A DNA stretch of 64,000 bases from a virus. The notes beneath the pieces are model-generated. The model did not search any database. It had not been told where the DNA came from and saw only the letters and a program-made list of their open reading frames with translations. The position numbers and the translations under genes were made by a program. Of this stretch, positions 18,681-39,097 are shown in pieces (within the stretch, counting starts at the first letter, position 1; the number at the start of each line of letters is the position of its first letter). Where the stretch lies: positions 1-64,000 of IMG/VR virus record IMGVR_UViG_3300020421_002453; one strand, 5' to 3'.

Positions 18681-19094
18681 ATGAGAACACAATTACTATG
18701 TACATTCACAAGGGTTCCAAAATTAAATGAAATAATAGATGTTATTGTATCATGCAATGATATTCTATTTGATAAGATATATGTTTTTAGTAACCAAAAT
18801 GACCCAACACAATTAATGTGTACTTACAATGTTGAGTTTATGGATAACTTTGAAGAGAACATTGAGAACACTATATCGTTACACAGAAAGAAACAATCAA
18901 ATACACTCTATACAATCAACGCATTGAATGAAGTTATCAGAGAAAAGAACGGTGGAGTTCTTGATAAATCATTTCAAGTAGATTGGTCAGAGTTTCAAAA
19001 CACATTGATATTAACTGCTGAAAGTGGATTGAATATCATACCTACAAAAATACATCAAATTGTCGATGTAAACGACTGGCAAAAGAAAATTTAA
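18681..19094 (+). CDS. Conserved-looking protein of unknown function
   Basis: A 137-residue protein, start supported by GGAG in TAGGAGATAAC upstream. An alpha/beta pattern is visible (LLCTFTRVPKLNEIIDVIVSCNDILFDKIYVFS). It looks soluble, with no metal-binding or nucleotide-binding motif. It is the last gene before the 700-base non-coding RNA region. No function assigned. Confidence 0.65.
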   Translation: MRTQLLCTFTRVPKLNEIIDVIVSCNDILFDKIYVFSNQNDPTQLMCTYNVEFMDNFEENIENTISLHRKKQSNTLYTINALNEVIREKNGGVLDKSFQVDWSEFQNTLILTAESGLNIIPTKIHQIVDVNDWQKKI

Positions 19095-19126
19095 AAAAAA
19101 ATTAACTTTTTGCAAAATAAATGCTA

Positions 19127-19155
19127 TTTTGAGAATTTATATACATATATATTTA
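19127..19155 (+). promoter_or_regulatory. Promoter candidate for the structured RNA (TTTTGA-17-TATTTA)
   Basis: Same -35 form and spacer as the candidates before thyX and the sliding clamp. It would start transcription near 19162, just ahead of the terminal stem of the RNA. Confidence 0.4.
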
Positions 19156-19187
19156 TGTATCTAAAATGAGATACAAAGTTTTTTGAA

Positions 19188-19600
19188 AATTGAGAAATCG
19201 GAAAGTACTGAGAGTAATTAACTCGGTATGGGATTGGCTGAATAATGAGTATACTTCGGAAGCTCATAAGGCAATCACAGATTAGTTCGTGGTGAACCTA
19301 CTTAGGTGTAAATCATTTCGGTAGTTGAGACATCAATAATCAGAAGTACTTGAAGAAAAAAACAGAAACGATTCTGTTGACCTTGTTGTGGGTAAGGGTA
19401 ATACTGAAATCCCACTTAATGACTGAATAAACTAAACTCTGAGAGTTAAAGTAATGGCATAGAGGTTGTACTCGATTCAATGAGATTAACCATCTTGAGA
19501 ATCACTTTCATAACTGAAAGATGTTAGGTACAAGGTATAAAAAATCAGAGCTTCAAGTTGTAAGTAATCGTTAACCTTACATCCCCTAAGATTTCCAATT
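19188..19600 (+). ncRNA. Large structured RNA, about 413 nt, class unknown
   Basis: The ends pair: 19188-19199 with 19590-19600 form 11 bp with one bulged A. Inside are many exact hairpins: 19212-15/19221-24, 19232-36/19272-76 enclosing 19245-49/19263-67, 19280-83/19311-14 enclosing 19285-88/19294-97, 19325-28/19333-36, 19361-67/19372-78 (7 bp, ACGA loop), 19388-92/19411-15, 19435-39/19443-47, 19464-67/19488-91, 19505-09/19516-20 and 19559-64/19576-81. The region is stop-rich in all frames and less homopolymeric than the intergenic DNA around it. A terminator follows. It lacks the conserved strings of tmRNA, RNase P, SRP RNA or a group I intron core. By size and branching it is comparable to the large ornate phage RNAs (GOLLD, ROOL classes), but I cannot assign it. 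Confidence 0.75.
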
Positions 19601-19610
19601 AAAAATTTAT

Positions 19611-19683
19611 AAAAAAAAGGTTCAACCGTATTTTTAGTTTCCACTATATTAAAACTTTAAAAAACAACCGAACCTTTTTTTTT
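19611..19683 (+). terminator. Terminator of the structured RNA
   Basis: AAAAAAAAGGTTC pairs with GAACCTTTTTTTT across a long apical part that contains a further AGTTT/AAACT helix, ending in a run of nine T. It isolates the RNA from the downstream SSB gene. Confidence 0.8.
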
Positions 19684-19721
19684 GCAAAAGGCAAGAAAAA
19701 ATTGATTTTAATCAATCAAGG

Positions 19722-19752
19722 TTATATTTATTAATGTATCGATAAATGATAC
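19722..19752 (+). promoter_or_regulatory. Late-type motif and leader hairpin of the SSB gene
   Basis: TTATATTTATTAATG (19722-19736) is a copy of the recurrent element. The 5-bp hairpin GTATC/GATAC (19736-19752) overlaps its end. T4 gene 32 controls its own translation through a leader RNA structure; whether this hairpin has such a role is untested. Confidence 0.4.
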
Positions 19753-19797
19753 GAATGATAAATGAATAATAAAACTAAACAAATAGGAGAATGAATA

Positions 19798-20562
19798 ATG
19801 GATTTAAATGCAATTAAAAAGCGACTTAATCAGTTACAAACCACAAACAATCGTACTTCCAGTCTTTGGAAACCACAACCAGGTAAAACACAAATTCGAA
19901 TAGTACCTTATGCTTTCAATAAAGATAATCCTTTTATTGAATTATTCTTCCATTACAATCTGAACAATCGTTCATATCTTTCACCAATTTCTTTTGGTAG
20001 ACCAGACCCAATCGAGGAGTTTGCTCAAAAACTAAAAGGAAGTGGTTCTAAGGAAGATTATCAATTAGCTCGTAAGTTAGAAGCTAAGATGAGAACTTTT
20101 GCACCAGTCATTGTAAGAGGAGAAGAAAAACAAGGTGTTAAATTTTGGGGATTTGGAAAGACAGTTTATCAAGAACTTCTTTCAATAATCGCTGACCCTG
20201 ATTATGGTGATATCACAGATGCAGTAAATGGTCGTGATGTAGTTGTTGAGTTCTTATCAGCAGAAGAGACGGGAGCATCGTTTCCTACAACAAAAATCCG
20301 AGTAAAACCTAATCAAACACCGATTTCAGATGAACCTGAAACTCTTGAATTGGTTAAAACCCAACAAGATATTAAGGAAATCTATCAAGAGTTATCTTAT
20401 GATGACCTTACAGATATTCTGAATGAGTGGTTGAATCCAAGTGATGATAACACAGATGGTGAAACTACTACTTCTAAAGAAGAAGTTTCTAAAACTGAAC
20501 TATCAAATGCTAAAGTGAAGAGTAATACTTCAGATGCCTTTGATGAATTGTTTAATTCATAA
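19798..20562 (+). CDS. gp32: Single-stranded DNA-binding protein (T4 gp32-like)
   Basis: A 254-residue SSB that coats single-stranded DNA during replication and recombination. Seen: a short basic N-terminal segment, then SLWKPQPGKTQIRIVPYAFNKDNPFIELFFHYN (the conserved core start in T4-like SSBs), SYLSPISFGRPDPIEEF, and an acidic, Ser/Thr-rich C-terminus ending DAFDELFNS, the usual protein-interaction tail. It lies directly before uvsX, matching its partnership in recombination. RBS: AGGAG. Confidence 0.92.
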   Translation: MDLNAIKKRLNQLQTTNNRTSSLWKPQPGKTQIRIVPYAFNKDNPFIELFFHYNLNNRSYLSPISFGRPDPIEEFAQKLKGSGSKEDYQLARKLEAKMRTFAPVIVRGEEKQGVKFWGFGKTVYQELLSIIADPDYGDITDAVNGRDVVVEFLSAEETGASFPTTKIRVKPNQTPISDEPETLELVKTQQDIKEIYQELSYDDLTDILNEWLNPSDDNTDGETTTSKEEVSKTELSNAKVKSNTSDAFDELFNS

Positions 20563-27741: not shown

Positions 27742-27775
27742 CCTGGCAGGCGACACACCAGGATAAAAATGTGTC
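27742..27775 (+). promoter_or_regulatory. H-type RNA pseudoknot ahead of the TonB receptor, possible riboswitch
   Basis: Stem 1: CCTGG (27742-46) with CCAGG (27758-62). Stem 2: GACACA (27752-57, in the loop of stem 1) with TGTGTC (27770-75). Loop 1 is CAGGC, the junction between stems is zero bases, and loop 3 is ATAAAAA. This is ideal H-type geometry, with an A-rich third loop as in preQ1-I and SAM-II riboswitches. It begins 13 bases after the RNR stop and ends 16 bases before the receptor Shine-Dalgarno. The GC-rich stems stand out from the AT-rich surroundings. No ligand can be named. It is unlikely to be a frameshift signal, since it lies after the stop codon. Confidence 0.6.
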
Positions 27776-27803
27776 ATTCACAAGTAACAACAAGGAGATG
27801 ATT

Positions 27804-30533
27804 ATGAATAAATATCGTAATCTGTTATCATCAGTGCTTATGATGACTGGACTGTTCGCACAGTCAATAGTCGGAGTAATAACTGATGTGGACTCAAATC
27901 CACTTGGAGGAGCTAACATTGTAGTTAACGGAACAGACTTAGGAGGAGTATCAGATAATACTGGTGCCTTTTCTATCAAAGTTGATTCTGGAACATATGA
28001 TGTAACAGCTTCTTACATTGGTTTCTCATCAATAACTAAATCAGTTGTTGTTGAGAAAAGTGCTACACTCGACTTCGTTTTAGAAGTTAGTTTTGTAGGA
28101 CTATCAGATGTTGAGGTGTTAGCATCTCGTGCATCTGAAACTACACCTGTTGCTTACACTAATGTTAGTAAAGAAGAAATGGAAGTGAGATTAGGTTCTC
28201 AAGATATTCCAATGATTCTTAACACAACACCAAGTGTATATGCAACTCAACAAGGTGGTGGTGCGGGTGATGCTCGTATCAACATTCGTGGTTTCAATCA
28301 AAGAAATGTTGCAGTGATGATTAATGGTGTTCCCCAAAATGATATGGAGAACGGATGGGTTTATTGGTCTAATTGGGATGGTGTAGGTGATGCTACATCT
28401 TCAATTCAGGTTCAAAGAGGTCTATCAGCTGTTAATCTTGCTACACCTTCTATTGGTGGAACAATGAATATTATTACCGACCCTACATCTTTTGAAAAGG
28501 GTGGAAAGTTCAAACAAGAAGCTGGTGATGGTGGTTTTCTAAAAACTACTTTTAACTACAATACTGGTCTTATTTTAAATGACAAGTTAGCTTTAAGTGG
28601 AACTATTGTTCGTAAAACTGGTGATGGAATAATCGATGGAACTTGGACTGATGCTTGGGCATACTACTTCGGTGGTTCATATGCTGTAAGTAATAAACAA
28701 AGGTTCGAGTTATATGCAATCGGTGCTCCACAACGACATGGACAAAATCTATACAAACAGAATATCGCTACTTACTCACAAGAGTTGGCTGGTGATGTAG
28801 ACGGATATGATACTGATGCTTTTGCAGAAGGTAACAAATTCGAAACTGAAGCTGGTAGATTTTTCAATCAGAATGTCGCACCTATTGACCCATCTTATAC
28901 AGGTAAACAATATTGGTATATGTATGGTGCAAGAACAACAGATAGATTCAACAAGAACTTCTTGAACGAAAGAGAAAACTTCTTCCATAAACCATTAGTG
29001 AACTTAAATCACTTCTTAGAAATAAACGATAAGATGGGTATCTCATCTATTGCTTATTGGAGTGGTGGTTCAGGTGGTGGAACTGGTACATATGGTAGTG
29101 TATCAAGAACACCAGCGGTTGAGGGAGAAAGATGGTATGCAAGTTCACCGTGGGCTTGGGATTGGAATGCTGAGATTGCTCAAAATTCTGATAACATCGA
29201 TGAAAACTTCTCTGTAGATGAAAATCGTTCAACAGGAATTCTTAGAAACTCTATCAATCGACAAGATACCTATGGATTAATTTCTAAATTAAATTATTCA
29301 GTTAATGATAACTTAGAAATACAAACAGGTATTGATTGGAGAACTGCTCGTATCGAACATGCTCGTGAAGTTAGAGATTTGTTAGGTGGAGATTACTATG
29401 TTGATTATGCTGATGACAATTTCGAGGACGGAAAAGTAGTTGGACTCGGAGATATAATCGCTTATCATAACGAAACAACTGTAGACTGGATTGGTGGTTT
29501 CTTACAAGGTAACTATACATCAGAAAAACTAAACCTATATGGTATGGGTGGAGTTTCTTCTATTAAATATAGTTATCAAGACCACTTCACAGTAGCAGAT
29601 GAAGTAATTACAGCTGACCCTATTTCTACTTATCAAGTAAAGGGTGGTGCATTATATAATGTAAATGAGAATCTTGGAGTATTCATTAATAGTGGATATG
29701 TTCAAAAGGCTCCTATCTTAGATAATGTAATCTACTACGATGGTGTAGTAGCTACCGACCCCGATAATGAGAAATTCTTACACAATGAACTTGGTGCCAA
29801 CTTTGGTACTGAGAAATTTGGTGTTAGAGTTAGTGCATACAACACAGATTGGAAAGATAGAAACTTGACTAAATCAGTACAGACTGGTCAAGGTGATTCA
29901 GGTGATACTGATATTATCTTCCTAAAAGGTGTTAACCAAAACCATAAAGGACTTGAAATCGAAACTAAAGTAAAACCAAATGATATGGTTGAACTTGATT
30001 TCATTTATTCTTATGGTGATTGGAAGTTCGATGGTGATGCCGATGGTACTTACCAAGAACAAGAGTACAATGATGAGAACCAAGTAATTGGTATTCAGAC
30101 CACAGATTACTCTTATGCACTTGATGGATTATATGTTGGTGATATGCCACAAACATCTTATATTTTAGGTGTTACACTTAAACCTGTTAAAGGATTAAGA
30201 CTTCAGGCGTTATACAAAACATATGATAGAAATTATGCTGACTGGTCACCTGATTCTCGTGAGATTGAGGGTGATGCGGACAGAGCTCAAGTTTGGGAAG
30301 CTCCTGGCTATTCAAAACTTGATTTACATGCATCTTATAAACTTCCTATCAAGGGATATGACATTTCTTTAAATGCTCATCTATTCAATGCTCTTGATGA
30401 AGTATTCGTACAAGATGCGGTTGACAACTCGAAATATAATGGGTGGGGTGATAAAGTTCATGCCGCACATAATGCTGAGGTATTCTTAGGAACACCAAGA
30501 TATGCAAATATTGGAGTTTCTGTTAACTTCTAA
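27804..30533 (+). CDS. TonB-dependent outer-membrane receptor
   Basis: A 909-residue protein that would sit in the host outer membrane and import a substrate with TonB energy. Start chosen at ATG 27804, six bases after AAGGAG; ATG 27798 touches the RBS and an earlier one at 27771 lies in the pseudoknot. A signal peptide (MNKYRNLLSSVLMMTGLFAQS) leads. Then comes a carboxypeptidase-regulatory-like beta domain (about 22-95; VGVITDVDSNPLGGANIVV), a plug (about 125-225; DIPMILNTTPSVY, INIRGFNQRNVAVMINGVPQND, SSIQVQRGLSAVN, IGGTMNIITD), and a long barrel ending in a C-terminal Phe (RYANIGVSVNF). All parts are present and uninterrupted. The architecture is typical of Bacteroidota/FCB cells, so it looks host-derived. 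The substrate is unknown. Confidence 0.93.
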   Translation: MNKYRNLLSSVLMMTGLFAQSIVGVITDVDSNPLGGANIVVNGTDLGGVSDNTGAFSIKVDSGTYDVTASYIGFSSITKSVVVEKSATLDFVLEVSFVGLSDVEVLASRASETTPVAYTNVSKEEMEVRLGSQDIPMILNTTPSVYATQQGGGAGDARINIRGFNQRNVAVMINGVPQNDMENGWVYWSNWDGVGDATSSIQVQRGLSAVNLATPSIGGTMNIITDPTSFEKGGKFKQEAGDGGFLKTTFNYNTGLILNDKLALSGTIVRKTGDGIIDGTWTDAWAYYFGGSYAVSNKQRFELYAIGAPQRHGQNLYKQNIATYSQELAGDVDGYDTDAFAEGNKFETEAGRFFNQNVAPIDPSYTGKQYWYMYGARTTDRFNKNFLNERENFFHKPLVNLNHFLEINDKMGISSIAYWSGGSGGGTGTYGSVSRTPAVEGERWYASSPWAWDWNAEIAQNSDNIDENFSVDENRSTGILRNSINRQDTYGLISKLNYSVNDNLEIQTGIDWRTARIEHAREVRDLLGGDYYVDYADDNFEDGKVVGLGDIIAYHNETTVDWIGGFLQGNYTSEKLNLYGMGGVSSIKYSYQDHFTVADEVITADPISTYQVKGGALYNVNENLGVFINSGYVQKAPILDNVIYYDGVVATDPDNEKFLHNELGANFGTEKFGVRVSAYNTDWKDRNLTKSVQTGQGDSGDTDIIFLKGVNQNHKGLEIETKVKPNDMVELDFIYSYGDWKFDGDADGTYQEQEYNDENQVIGIQTTDYSYALDGLYVGDMPQTSYILGVTLKPVKGLRLQALYKTYDRNYADWSPDSREIEGDADRAQVWEAPGYSKLDLHASYKLPIKGYDISLNAHLFNALDEVFVQDAVDNSKYNGWGDKVHAAHNAEVFLGTPRYANIGVSVNF

Positions 30534-36832: not shown

Positions 36833-39097
36833 ATGTCAACGCAGATAACAAGAACAAAAGAATTTATAAATTATATTACAGGTAGTGCTGGTGGATGGCC
36901 ATCATTATCAAATGCTGGAATTCTTGGTAATATAGACTATGTCATAGAAAGTGGTTCCAACGAAGTAAAATTTATAGAAATGAATACCAACATTGGAATT
37001 ATTGGTAGTGCAGCAATACAAACAGGTAGTTACTTCGATGTAATATCAGATTATGCAAATGAAAAAGGATATACGACTACTTATGTTTACGGAGTTAATC
37101 AGAATGGTAAAAAAAATCCATCAACACTTCAACAACCATTAATTAGTGAGAGTTTTGCACGACATGATATACCGACCAATTTTGAATACAACAATAATAC
37201 ATCACACACTTATTTTTCACAAACAGGTCAAGCACAATATTCAGGTAGTTTCCACTTATTTATACAAACGCCTTGGTATGGTGATGATAATTTAAAAAGT
37301 ATAGTTAGTGGTTCATTTAATAAAACTACATTTAGAACATTCTTGGGTAATTCACCATTTAGTTCTTCTTTGATATCATTATTTGATAAGGATAATTATA
37401 CACCAAATAATAATTATCCAGATTATGTAGTTAAAACTGCAACTCAAGATTCGAGTATTCAAACTAATAAAATTGGTTTTTACACATACAATTCAACAAG
37501 TTCAAGTTATCAAAACGGAGTTGATAGTGGTTCTTTGATAGAAGAATATATTGTTCATAGTGGAAGTTATAAAGAGGGGCAATCATTCTTGGGTGTAGGT
37601 AAAATAGATTTTATGTTGACACCAGAAAAGGTTGTTGTGTTTGGTGATAGAGATGCTGGTAAAGATATTAAACTAAAACCGACAAAAACAGATAGTTGGG
37701 ATTATATATCACGAAGAGCAAAAACATCTGCAAGTGGTAGTTTAATTAAAATGTATGATGGTTCAACAAAACAAGTTCAAGATGTTGAAGTTGGAGATGT
37801 TGTTTTAAGTTATCAACCATATGGAATGCCAGATGAAACAAAAGATTATTTATCTTATACCACAACAGATTTAAGTGGTTCCACAACACAAGGTTCTATT
37901 GTTGTAGAAGCAATGAACACAAAAAATTATGGATATTATTTAATCAATGATAGTATTAAAGCACCTTATAATTTACAACAGGCAAGTAGTGATGTTAGAT
38001 ATTTTGTAAAACAAGGAGATACTTGGGAATGGATAACAACAGATGTTATTAGTACTGGAGATTATCTTTTAGACCCAAGTGGTAATGAAGTAGAAGTTGT
38101 ATCAAAGACAGAACATGATGGTGATGAACTTTGGTATTCATTAGATGTTGAGGATATTGATACTTACTTCCAATCAAATATATTGGTTCATAATATTCCA
38201 CCGAAATGTTTTGTAGCAGGAACACCAATCACTATGGGTGATGGAACTACAAAAGTTATTGAAAGAGTTGAAATTGGTGATGAAGTTATGAATTATAATT
38301 TCAAAGATGAAGAAGTTCAGACAGGTAAAGTTACCACGATTGATATGCCAATTCATGCTGATATTATAGAAATAAGTTTTAATAGTAAAACTACTAAAAA
38401 TACCTTTGACCATCCTTATTGGGTTGTTGGAAAGGGTTGGAGTTCATATAAACCAGAGTGGACTAAAAAACGATATGATATAGAATCAAACCAATTAGAA
38501 GTTGGTGATAAGTGTTTAGAACTTCGTGATGGTAAATTAGTGGAAAGAGAAATTACTAATATTGTTGAAGATATAAATCCAGTCCAAACTTATTCATTAG
38601 AAATAACAACAAACCATAACTATTTTGCAAATGATGTATTAGTTCATAACAAATTCTGTTTAATGGAAGACCAAGTAATTAATATGGGAGATGGTGTTTA
38701 TAAAAGAATTGATGAGGTAGAATTAGGTGAAAGTATTTTACAATACGATGAAGAAACTGAAGAGTTTAAAGAGGGTAAAGTAAATGTTATAAGAAAGAAA
38801 CTACATGATAATTGTTATGGAATCAAAGTTGAAAGTGGACAAACAATTAAAGCAACTGATAACCATCCATTTTTATTGAGAGATAAAGGTTGGTCTACAA
38901 TTGGTGAAAACAATCCAACATTTTTACAAGATGGTGGTGGTATTATAAAAGTTGGTGATTATGTTAGAGATATAGATGGATGGGTAGAAATTGTAGAAAT
39001 CAATAAAATTGAGGGAGAATATACAACATATAACTTGTTAGAACAAGATTATGGAACTATTATTGCTCATGATATTGTAACTCACAATTCACCTTAA
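36833..39097 (+). CDS. Protein with three tandem Hint (hedgehog/intein) domains
   Basis: 754 residues. Residues 1-298 are Ser/Thr/Gly/Asn-rich and unassigned (FIEMNTNIG and SLIEEYIVHSG faintly recall ATP-grasp pieces). Then come three Hint modules of about 150 residues. Hint 1 (about 299-454) opens SGSLIKMYDGSTKQVQDVEVGD and ends LVHN, but lacks an N-terminal Cys and the block B His. Hint 2 begins at Cys459 (CFVAGTPITMGDG), has TFDHPYW and ends VLVHN (606). Hint 3 begins at Cys609 (CLMEDQVINMGDG), has TDNHPF and ends THN(752)-Ser-Pro-stop. Hints 2 and 3 keep the residues for self-cleavage; no homing endonuclease is inserted. Late-type motif upstream. Possibly a self-processing virion or surface protein. 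Confidence 0.85.
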   Translation: MSTQITRTKEFINYITGSAGGWPSLSNAGILGNIDYVIESGSNEVKFIEMNTNIGIIGSAAIQTGSYFDVISDYANEKGYTTTYVYGVNQNGKKNPSTLQQPLISESFARHDIPTNFEYNNNTSHTYFSQTGQAQYSGSFHLFIQTPWYGDDNLKSIVSGSFNKTTFRTFLGNSPFSSSLISLFDKDNYTPNNNYPDYVVKTATQDSSIQTNKIGFYTYNSTSSSYQNGVDSGSLIEEYIVHSGSYKEGQSFLGVGKIDFMLTPEKVVVFGDRDAGKDIKLKPTKTDSWDYISRRAKTSASGSLIKMYDGSTKQVQDVEVGDVVLSYQPYGMPDETKDYLSYTTTDLSGSTTQGSIVVEAMNTKNYGYYLINDSIKAPYNLQQASSDVRYFVKQGDTWEWITTDVISTGDYLLDPSGNEVEVVSKTEHDGDELWYSLDVEDIDTYFQSNILVHNIPPKCFVAGTPITMGDGTTKVIERVEIGDEVMNYNFKDEEVQTGKVTTIDMPIHADIIEISFNSKTTKNTFDHPYWVVGKGWSSYKPEWTKKRYDIESNQLEVGDKCLELRDGKLVEREITNIVEDINPVQTYSLEITTNHNYFANDVLVHNKFCLMEDQVINMGDGVYKRIDEVELGESILQYDEETEEFKEGKVNVIRKKLHDNCYGIKVESGQTIKATDNHPFLLRDKGWSTIGENNPTFLQDGGGIIKVGDYVRDIDGWVEIVEINKIEGEYTTYNLLEQDYGTIIAHDIVTHNSP

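What the first reader, a model, noticed from the sequence alone, without database searches (positions are those of the whole stretch)
19127..19683. Large, highly branched non-coding RNA upstream of the SSB gene, class unknown
A 413-base stretch with no reading frame has ends that pair over 11 bp (19188-19199/19590-19600, one bulge) and at least ten exact internal hairpins, including a 7-bp one with an ACGA loop (19361-19378) and a nested two-step helix (19232-19276). A promoter candidate precedes it and a dedicated terminator follows (19611-19683). This looks like a stand-alone RNA rather than an mRNA leader. It lacks the conserved motifs of tmRNA, RNase P, SRP RNA and group I introns. Large ornate phage RNAs (GOLLD, ROOL) are established but I cannot match it to either.
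Basis: partly seen in the sequence, partly recalled or inferred. Interest (0 to 1): 0.88.

Follow-up and report, generated by a model that had tools for sequence, protein, structure and literature searches.

The report
Double-core manA RNA in marine phage
The unidentified phage RNA is a previously undescribed two-core form of a known but functionally unsolved marine RNA family (manA), made next to the phage's DNA-binding-protein gene with its own start and stop signals, which makes it a good test case for what this RNA family does.

Summary
Rfam identifies the RNA as manA (RF01745, an orphan riboswitch candidate), present as two cores: 19387-19585 (61.2 bits, above cut-off) and 19206-19418 (39.9 bits, E 2e-10). 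The cores share one central hairpin and lie inside one outer helix (19230-19234/19581-19585). That helix pairs in 86 of 86 homologues, through three alternative complementary sequences. Canonical marine-virus manA RNAs are single-core (49 of 50 records with one match, one with none).
At this locus the RNA has its own phage promoter and a covarying terminator hairpin, and SSB has a second copy of that promoter. Relatives exist that lack the RNA. A terminator separates RNA from SSB in 48/48 double-core loci, but in 0/17 canonical manA-SSB loci. So "stand-alone RNA" is supported here; yet the same RNA precedes hsp20 without a terminator, so a leader role is not excluded.
The 3' hairpin, with an invariant AUUUUUAGUUUCCAC strand, recurs without manA and gave no Rfam match where searched. 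No transcript has been seen; ligand and function are unknown. Verdict: new variant of a known kind.

The parts
18681..19094 (+). conserved upstream gene (137 aa, MRTQLLCTF...), last gene before the RNA
   Evidence: ORF; the same gene precedes SSB in most relatives, with or without the RNA; no Pfam match
19120..19150 (+). phage promoter of the RNA (AATGCTATTTT ... TATATATAT)
   Evidence: the motif, defined from these two promoters, occurs in the 64-kb window only here and at 19700; found in 28/28 RNA-bearing homologues tested; activity inferred
19156..19175 (+). 5'-terminal hairpin TGTATCT/AGATACA just after the presumed start site
   Evidence: direct reading; different but self-complementary sequences at this place in homologues (by eye)
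19188..19600 (+). double-core manA RNA; closed by P1 19188-19192+19194-19199 / 19590-19600
19206..19228 (+). P0 hairpin (TACTGAG/CTCGGTA)
   Evidence: 97.9% of cells paired, 3 of 7 pairs with two-sided change
19230..19234 (+). 5' strand of the outer manA helix (GGGAT)
   Evidence: pairs with 19581-19585; 100% paired in 41; GGGAT/ATCCC 62, GGAAT/ATTCC 16, GGGGT/ACCCC 6, G-U wobble 2
19206..19418 (+). manA core 1 (Rfam hit, full model 1-192)
   Evidence: 39.9 bits, E 2.3e-10, below the family cut-off of 55.2
19387..19418 (+). hairpin shared by both Rfam hits: 3' hairpin of core 1, 5' hairpin of core 2 (GTGGG/CCCAC at 19388-19392/19411-19415)
   Evidence: overlap of the two hits; 100% paired, 2 pairs with two-sided change
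19387..19585 (+). manA core 2 (Rfam hit, full model 1-192)
   Evidence: 61.2 bits, gathering score 55.2, E 3.8e-13
19581..19585 (+). 3' strand of the outer manA helix (ATCCC)
19611..19683 (+). 3' hairpin with invariant ATTTTTAGTTTCCAC strand and U-tract; intrinsic terminator at this locus
   Evidence: arms covary; 48/48 SSB loci have the terminator; recurs without manA
19700..19735 (+). second copy of the phage promoter, driving SSB
   Evidence: the motif is also found before SSB in 27/43 loci that lack the RNA hairpin
19798..20562 (+). gp32-like single-stranded DNA-binding protein gene
   Evidence: Pfam PF08804, E 5.7e-13

Best explanation
The feature is a double-core member of the manA RNA family (RF01745). 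Two complete manA cores sit head to tail inside one shared outer helix and share one central hairpin, followed by a separate conserved hairpin that here ends in a U-tract. At this locus it is most likely made as a discrete transcript of about 530 nt: started at its own phage promoter, ended at its own terminator, with SSB transcribed from a second copy of the same promoter just downstream. Shown by sequence comparison: family, two-core fold, shared helix, terminator hairpin, paired promoter motifs, presence/absence between relatives. Inferred: start site, termination in vivo, and action as an accumulated structured RNA (receptor for a ligand or protein, or trans-acting) rather than mainly as a switch on SSB transcription. 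Likelihood: family and two-core fold 0.97; discrete terminated transcript here 0.7; function mainly as a free RNA rather than an SSB attenuator about 0.4-0.45.
For: Family: both halves match the full RF01745 model, and homologues match likewise. Fold: 59/97 pairs with two-sided changes; outer helix complementary in 86/86 through three sequence types and one wobble type, with 2 to 4 independent switches on a tree built without those columns. Discrete unit: relatives with SSB at 76% identity or less mostly have a gap of about 97 nt with the SSB promoter and no RNA; relatives at 79% or more have mostly 690-810 nt with the RNA where the upstream gene is present. Promoter motif at 19120 and 19700 only. 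Terminator between RNA and SSB in 48/48 double-core SSB loci, in 0/17 canonical ones. No conserved antiterminator: a 7-nt complement of either terminator arm occurs at the same place in at most 2 of 39 homologues. L398 has promoter-hairpin-promoter-SSB without manA, so the hairpin/terminator is its own module.
Against: No transcript data. manA precedes gp32/SSB in two unrelated-looking phage settings (48 or more double-core loci, up to 29 of 120 canonical loci), which suggests a link to SSB expression. At hsp20 loci the 3' hairpin lacks a U-tract, and a few other double-core loci lack the hairpin, so there the RNA would be a leader. A terminator can be conditional even without a visible antiterminator.
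Confidence: 0.68

Rival explanations
1. Transcription attenuator (tandem riboswitch-like leader): transcription from the distal promoter runs through two ligand- or protein-sensing manA cores, and the state of the cores sets how much passes the terminator into SSB, on top of the constitutive proximal promoter.
For: manA is classed as a riboswitch candidate found in 5' UTRs (PMC2864571); SSB is the commonest gene after both canonical and double-core manA in these samples; the promoter-RNA-terminator-gene order is typical of attenuation; tandem aptamers are linked in PMC2864571 to more digital control.
Against: Terminator and P1 do not overlap and no conserved alternative pairing exists; SSB has its own promoter, also present in relatives without the RNA; at hsp20 loci the hairpin is not a terminator and is far from the start codon.
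Confidence: 0.33
2. Generic 5' transcript module: manA cores at the start of strong phage transcripts protect the RNA or modify RNA polymerase (put-like antitermination), without a metabolite ligand.
For: Canonical manA usually starts a few bases after a TTGACA/TATAAT promoter, and the genes behind it are diverse: SSB, transaldolase, ManA, tRNA-Asn; a tRNA cannot be regulated at translation. Phage promoters at this locus are followed by 5'-terminal hairpins.
Against: In the double-core lineage a terminator directly follows the element and is conserved, the opposite of what antitermination needs unless it is regulated; the high sequence conservation of the cores exceeds what a stabiliser needs (inference).
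Confidence: 0.15
3. SSB autoregulation: the phage SSB (gp32-like) binds its upstream RNA, analogous to T4 gp32 binding its own leader.
For: Repeated placement next to gp32-like genes; conserved AU-rich 3' hairpin also sits alone before SSB.
Against: Most canonical manA loci precede other genes or tRNAs; here the RNA is separated from SSB by a terminator and promoter; many relatives regulate SSB without it.
Confidence: 0.08

Closest known systems
manA RNA, Rfam RF01745 (Weinberg et al. 2010, PMC2864571; updated in Rfam 14, PMC7779021)
   Same: Both halves match the full model; CUGAAUAA and UAAgG motifs, outer GGGAN/NUCCC helix, multibranched P3-P6, 5' and 3' hairpins; marine viral setting; hsp20 and SSB neighbours
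   Different: Two cores in one outer helix instead of one; added closing helix P1; the long P7 stem of the model is degenerate; separate 3' hairpin/terminator; Bacteroidota-like phages (inferred); SSB behind its own promoter
Tandem riboswitches (glycine; glnA candidates in PMC2864571)
   Same: Two related cores in series upstream of a gene
   Different: Here the cores are nested in one common helix, not two separate aptamers; no ligand known; followed by a terminator without a visible antiterminator
GOLLD / ROOL large phage RNAs
   Same: Large, ornate, terminated phage RNA (general knowledge)
   Different: No match to either Rfam family at gathering threshold or at E<=5 over 19000-19800
put RNA of phage HK022 / EAR antitermination RNAs (from memory)
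   Same: Structured RNA right after a phage promoter
   Different: No sequence or structure match; a terminator directly follows; untested analogy

Membership tests
manA RNA (RF01745) | covariance-model score at or above the gathering score of 55.2 bits | tested here: met
   core 2: 61.2 bits. Core 1 alone: 39.9 bits, below cut-off but E 2.3e-10
manA RNA (RF01745) | outer helix GGGAG/CUCCC enclosing the core | tested here: met
   present once, around both cores; 86/86 complementary, two positions covary; canonical form GGGAG/CUCCC or GGGUG/CACCC has an exact complement in 99 of 109 sampled loci with those strands
manA RNA (RF01745) | conserved CUGAAUAA...UAAgG internal loop and P2a hairpin | tested here: met
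   present in both cores, P2 and P2a covary
manA RNA (RF01745) | multibranched P3 with hairpins P4-P6 | tested here: met
   P3, P4, P6 paired in 97.5-100% of cells in both cores with two-sided changes; P5 less regular, 72-84%
manA RNA (RF01745) | 7-bp stem with inner hairpin (agcgacg/cgucgcu) before the 3' hairpin | tested here: not met
   outer stem absent or mismatched in both cores; only the inner hairpin of core 1 (19361-19378) is recognisable
manA RNA (RF01745) | location in the 5' UTR of a gene (Rfam type Cis-reg) | tested here: inconclusive
   upstream of SSB but separated by a terminator and a promoter; at hsp20 loci no terminator
riboswitch | direct ligand binding that changes gene expression | not testable with these tools
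   no ligand known for manA; needs in-line probing and reporter assays
GOLLD / ROOL | match to the Rfam model | tested here: not met
   only manA passes in the window; none listed in the permissive search of 19000-19800
tmRNA, RNase P, SRP RNA, group I intron | match to the Rfam model or ARAGORN | tested here: not met

The most novel reading that the evidence does not exclude
Marine phages, probably of Bacteroidota, carry a stand-alone, self-terminated RNA in which an orphan riboswitch core has been duplicated inside one closing helix and joined to a separate conserved phage hairpin, giving a trans-acting or cooperative RNA device next to the SSB gene; the manA family would then not be only a cis-regulatory leader.
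Probability: 0.4. Interest if true: 0.75.

Novelty: new variant of a known kind. Interest (0 to 1): 0.56.

Why it matters
manA is an orphan: strong covariation, marine viral distribution, no ligand or function known to me. A form with two cores under one helix, present in some close phages and absent in others, with its own promoter and terminator, turns a vague "5' UTR motif" into a testable unit. The contrast of 48/48 terminated against 0/17 unterminated manA-SSB loci asks directly whether manA acts in cis or in trans. The separate conserved hairpin (AUUUUUAGUUUCCAC) is a second RNA module without an Rfam match in the sequences searched here.

Tried and rejected
GOLLD, ROOL, tmRNA, RNase P, SRP, group I intron: no Rfam or ARAGORN match. 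Isolated-phage DNA homologues: none by blastn; the nearest isolates by protein, Flavobacterium phage immuto and 'Microcystis phage Mel-JY01', lack manA and immuto has a 107-nt gap before SSB. Prokaryote genomes: no exact match to the double-core pattern. Conserved antiterminator: none. A protein in this stretch: no + strand ORF of 40 aa or more. Classical sigma-70 promoter: not supported. A first, over-strict regular expression for the phage promoter found nothing and was loosened, so that motif is defined partly from the two sites it finds. Tertiary contact between the core 1 GUGGUG loop and the CCAC of the 3' hairpin: considered, both nearly invariant, so not testable by covariation. Papers on manA function: none found beyond PMC2864571, PMC9964418, PMC7779021 and PMC7657543.

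Full report
WHAT IS THERE. The window lies in a 73-kb marine virus record. The stretch between a conserved 137-aa gene (18681-19094) and a gp32-like SSB gene (19798-20562; Pfam PF08804, E 5.7e-13) has no + strand ORF of 40 aa or more. The 413-nt stretch folds with z = -2.3.

WHAT IT IS. cmscan of the whole window gives one match over cut-off: RF01745 manA at 19387-19585, 61.2 bits against a gathering score of 55.2. A permissive scan shows a second manA match over 19206-19380, and the genome search extends it to 19206-19418 with 39.9 bits, E 2.3e-10. Both matches span the full model 1-192. They overlap in one hairpin (19387-19418). In the alignment of core 2 to the model, exactly the outer '[[[[[ ]]]]]' helix is deleted on both sides.

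ONE OUTER HELIX AROUND TWO CORES. The missing outer helix is formed by GGGAT just before core 1 (19230-19234) and ATCCC just after core 2 (19581-19585). In 41 aligned homologues this helix is paired in every cell: 30 rows have a G at the middle position, 11 have GGAAT, and the 3' strand changes with it each time. On a tree built without these columns the change occurred at least twice and up to four times. In a wider set of 86 distinct loci the pairs are GGGAT/ATCCC 62, GGAAT/ATTCC 16, GGGGT/ACCCC 6 and GGGAT/GTCCC (G-U) 2; none is broken. Two of the five positions therefore vary in a compensatory way. Canonical manA has GGGAG/CUCCC or GGGUG/CACCC in the same role.

COVARIATION OVERALL. For the 97 pairs of the proposed structure, 90.9% of cells are standard pairs, against 76.7% when 3' letters are shuffled and 36.6-46.9% when partners are slid; 59 pairs have two-sided changes; covariation score 0.443 against 0.181 shuffled. 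The shuffles do not correct for relatedness; the slid controls do. The long P7 stem of the Rfam model is missing or degenerate in both cores, so the family match is not complete.

HOW COMMON THE TWO-CORE FORM IS. Relatives were fetched by SSB protein and by DNA patterns. Among 50 records holding canonical manA, 49 had one match and one had none; no two canonical cores lay within 600 nt in 120 loci. Records found with the core-1 pattern almost all match manA, often twice. The core-1 pattern has no exact match in 84,980 prokaryote species genomes; canonical manA appears there in a Prochlorococcus single-cell genome and a gammaproteobacterial MAG. The nearest isolated phages by SSB protein are Flavobacterium phage immuto (42%) and Mel-JY01 (48%); immuto has SSB, RecA, exonuclease and helicase in the order seen here. 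A Bacteroidota host is inferred, not shown.

TRANSCRIPTION UNIT. A promoter-like motif (A-W-T..TTT, spacer, TATAYWTATW) occurs in the window at 19120, before the RNA, and at 19700, before SSB, and nowhere else; shuffles give 0.07 per strand. The motif was loosened after a stricter form failed, so it is partly defined by these two sites. It is found before the RNA in 28/28 homologues, and before SSB in 25/35 loci with and 27/43 loci without the 3' hairpin. In relatives with SSB at 76% identity or less the gap before SSB is mostly about 97 nt and holds no RNA; in those at 79% or more it is mostly 690-810 nt where the upstream gene is present. So promoter-RNA-terminator behaves as a cassette that is present or absent.

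THE 3' HAIRPIN. The arms of 19611-19683 change together (GGTTC/GAACC, GGCC/GGCC, GCCCC/GGGGC, GAGAGCC/GGCTCTC), while ATTTTTAGTTTCCAC and AAACTTAAAAA inside stay nearly constant. It is followed by a U-tract at SSB loci; the terminator test is positive in 48/48 double-core SSB loci and 0/17 canonical manA-SSB loci, where about 30 nt separate manA from the start codon. In two hsp20 loci (L092, L163) the hairpin is kept without a U-tract; in L090/L121 and L136/L162 it is degenerate or absent. The hairpin also occurs without manA: promoter-hairpin-promoter-SSB in L398, before a related SSB in L318 and others, behind hsp20-like genes in L377 and L382, and behind another gene in L326 and others. It is therefore an independent module. 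It has no Rfam match in the sequences searched.

HOW IT MOST LIKELY WORKS. Shown: family, fold, shared outer helix, terminator and promoter motifs, cassette behaviour. Inferred: a discrete RNA of about 530 nt is made here (0.7). Against a simple attenuator: no conserved antiterminator (at most 2 of 39 share a site), P1 and terminator do not overlap, and SSB has its own promoter. For a link with SSB or leader function: SSB is the commonest neighbour of both manA forms in these samples, and hsp20 loci look like true leaders. Canonical manA also precedes transaldolase, ManA and tRNA-Asn, so translation control cannot be its general function. I favour a free structured RNA at this locus (0.4-0.45), then an attenuator (0.33), then a general 5' transcript module (0.15).

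AGAINST WHAT IS KNOWN. Weinberg et al. 2010 (PMC2864571) describe manA in marine metagenomes, cyanophage and two gammaproteobacteria, in potential 5' UTRs; the text passages read mention tandem arrangements for glnA, pan and STAXI, not for manA. Rfam 14 (PMC7779021) updated the alignment. I found no paper on a two-core manA, but the library searched holds open-access papers only. Novelty: new variant of a known kind.

LIMITS. No transcript or ligand data. Counts of neighbours come from pattern-selected loci and are not unbiased frequencies. ORF calls behind manA are mechanical. E-values for single genomes are for one genome only.

Noticed in passing
window 19611-19683; L398 6550-6650 (- strand); L318, L326, L327, L377, L382: A hairpin with a nearly invariant AUUUUUAGUUUCCAC...AAACUUAAAAA interior and covarying outer stem recurs in marine phages with and without manA, as terminator or not; no Rfam match in the sequences searched.
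   Followed up: partly
L106 9960-10230, also L139 and L156: Behind the RNA and its terminator lies about 600 nt without a clear gene, including a compact structured-looking stretch after a short ORF; no Rfam match at E 0.5 and no tRNA.
   Followed up: partly
window 19156-19175 and 19735-19760; homologues: Both phage promoters here are followed by short self-complementary 5' ends (such as TGTATC...GATACA) whose sequence differs between relatives; possible 5'-terminal stabilising hairpins.
   Followed up: no
L187, L191, L195, L207, L212, L240, L245, L251 downstream of canonical manA: Canonical marine manA RNAs are often followed by another conserved hairpin/terminator, AGACCTAAGATGCAACTC...GGGCAGATGGTCTTTTTT (14 of 109 loci).
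   Followed up: no
window 27771-30533: A 920-aa TonB-dependent-receptor-like protein with CarboxypepD_reg and Plug domains lies in the phage genome; only distant, partial matches in isolated phages.
   Followed up: partly
window 36833-39097: A 754-aa protein carries intein/Hint splicing domains (Pfam), probably an intein inside a phage gene.
   Followed up: no
L351, L353, L397, L406 upstream of SSB: A more diverged double-core manA (GGGGT/ACCCC outer helix, 24-35 bits) with the same 3' hairpin before SSB.
   Followed up: partly
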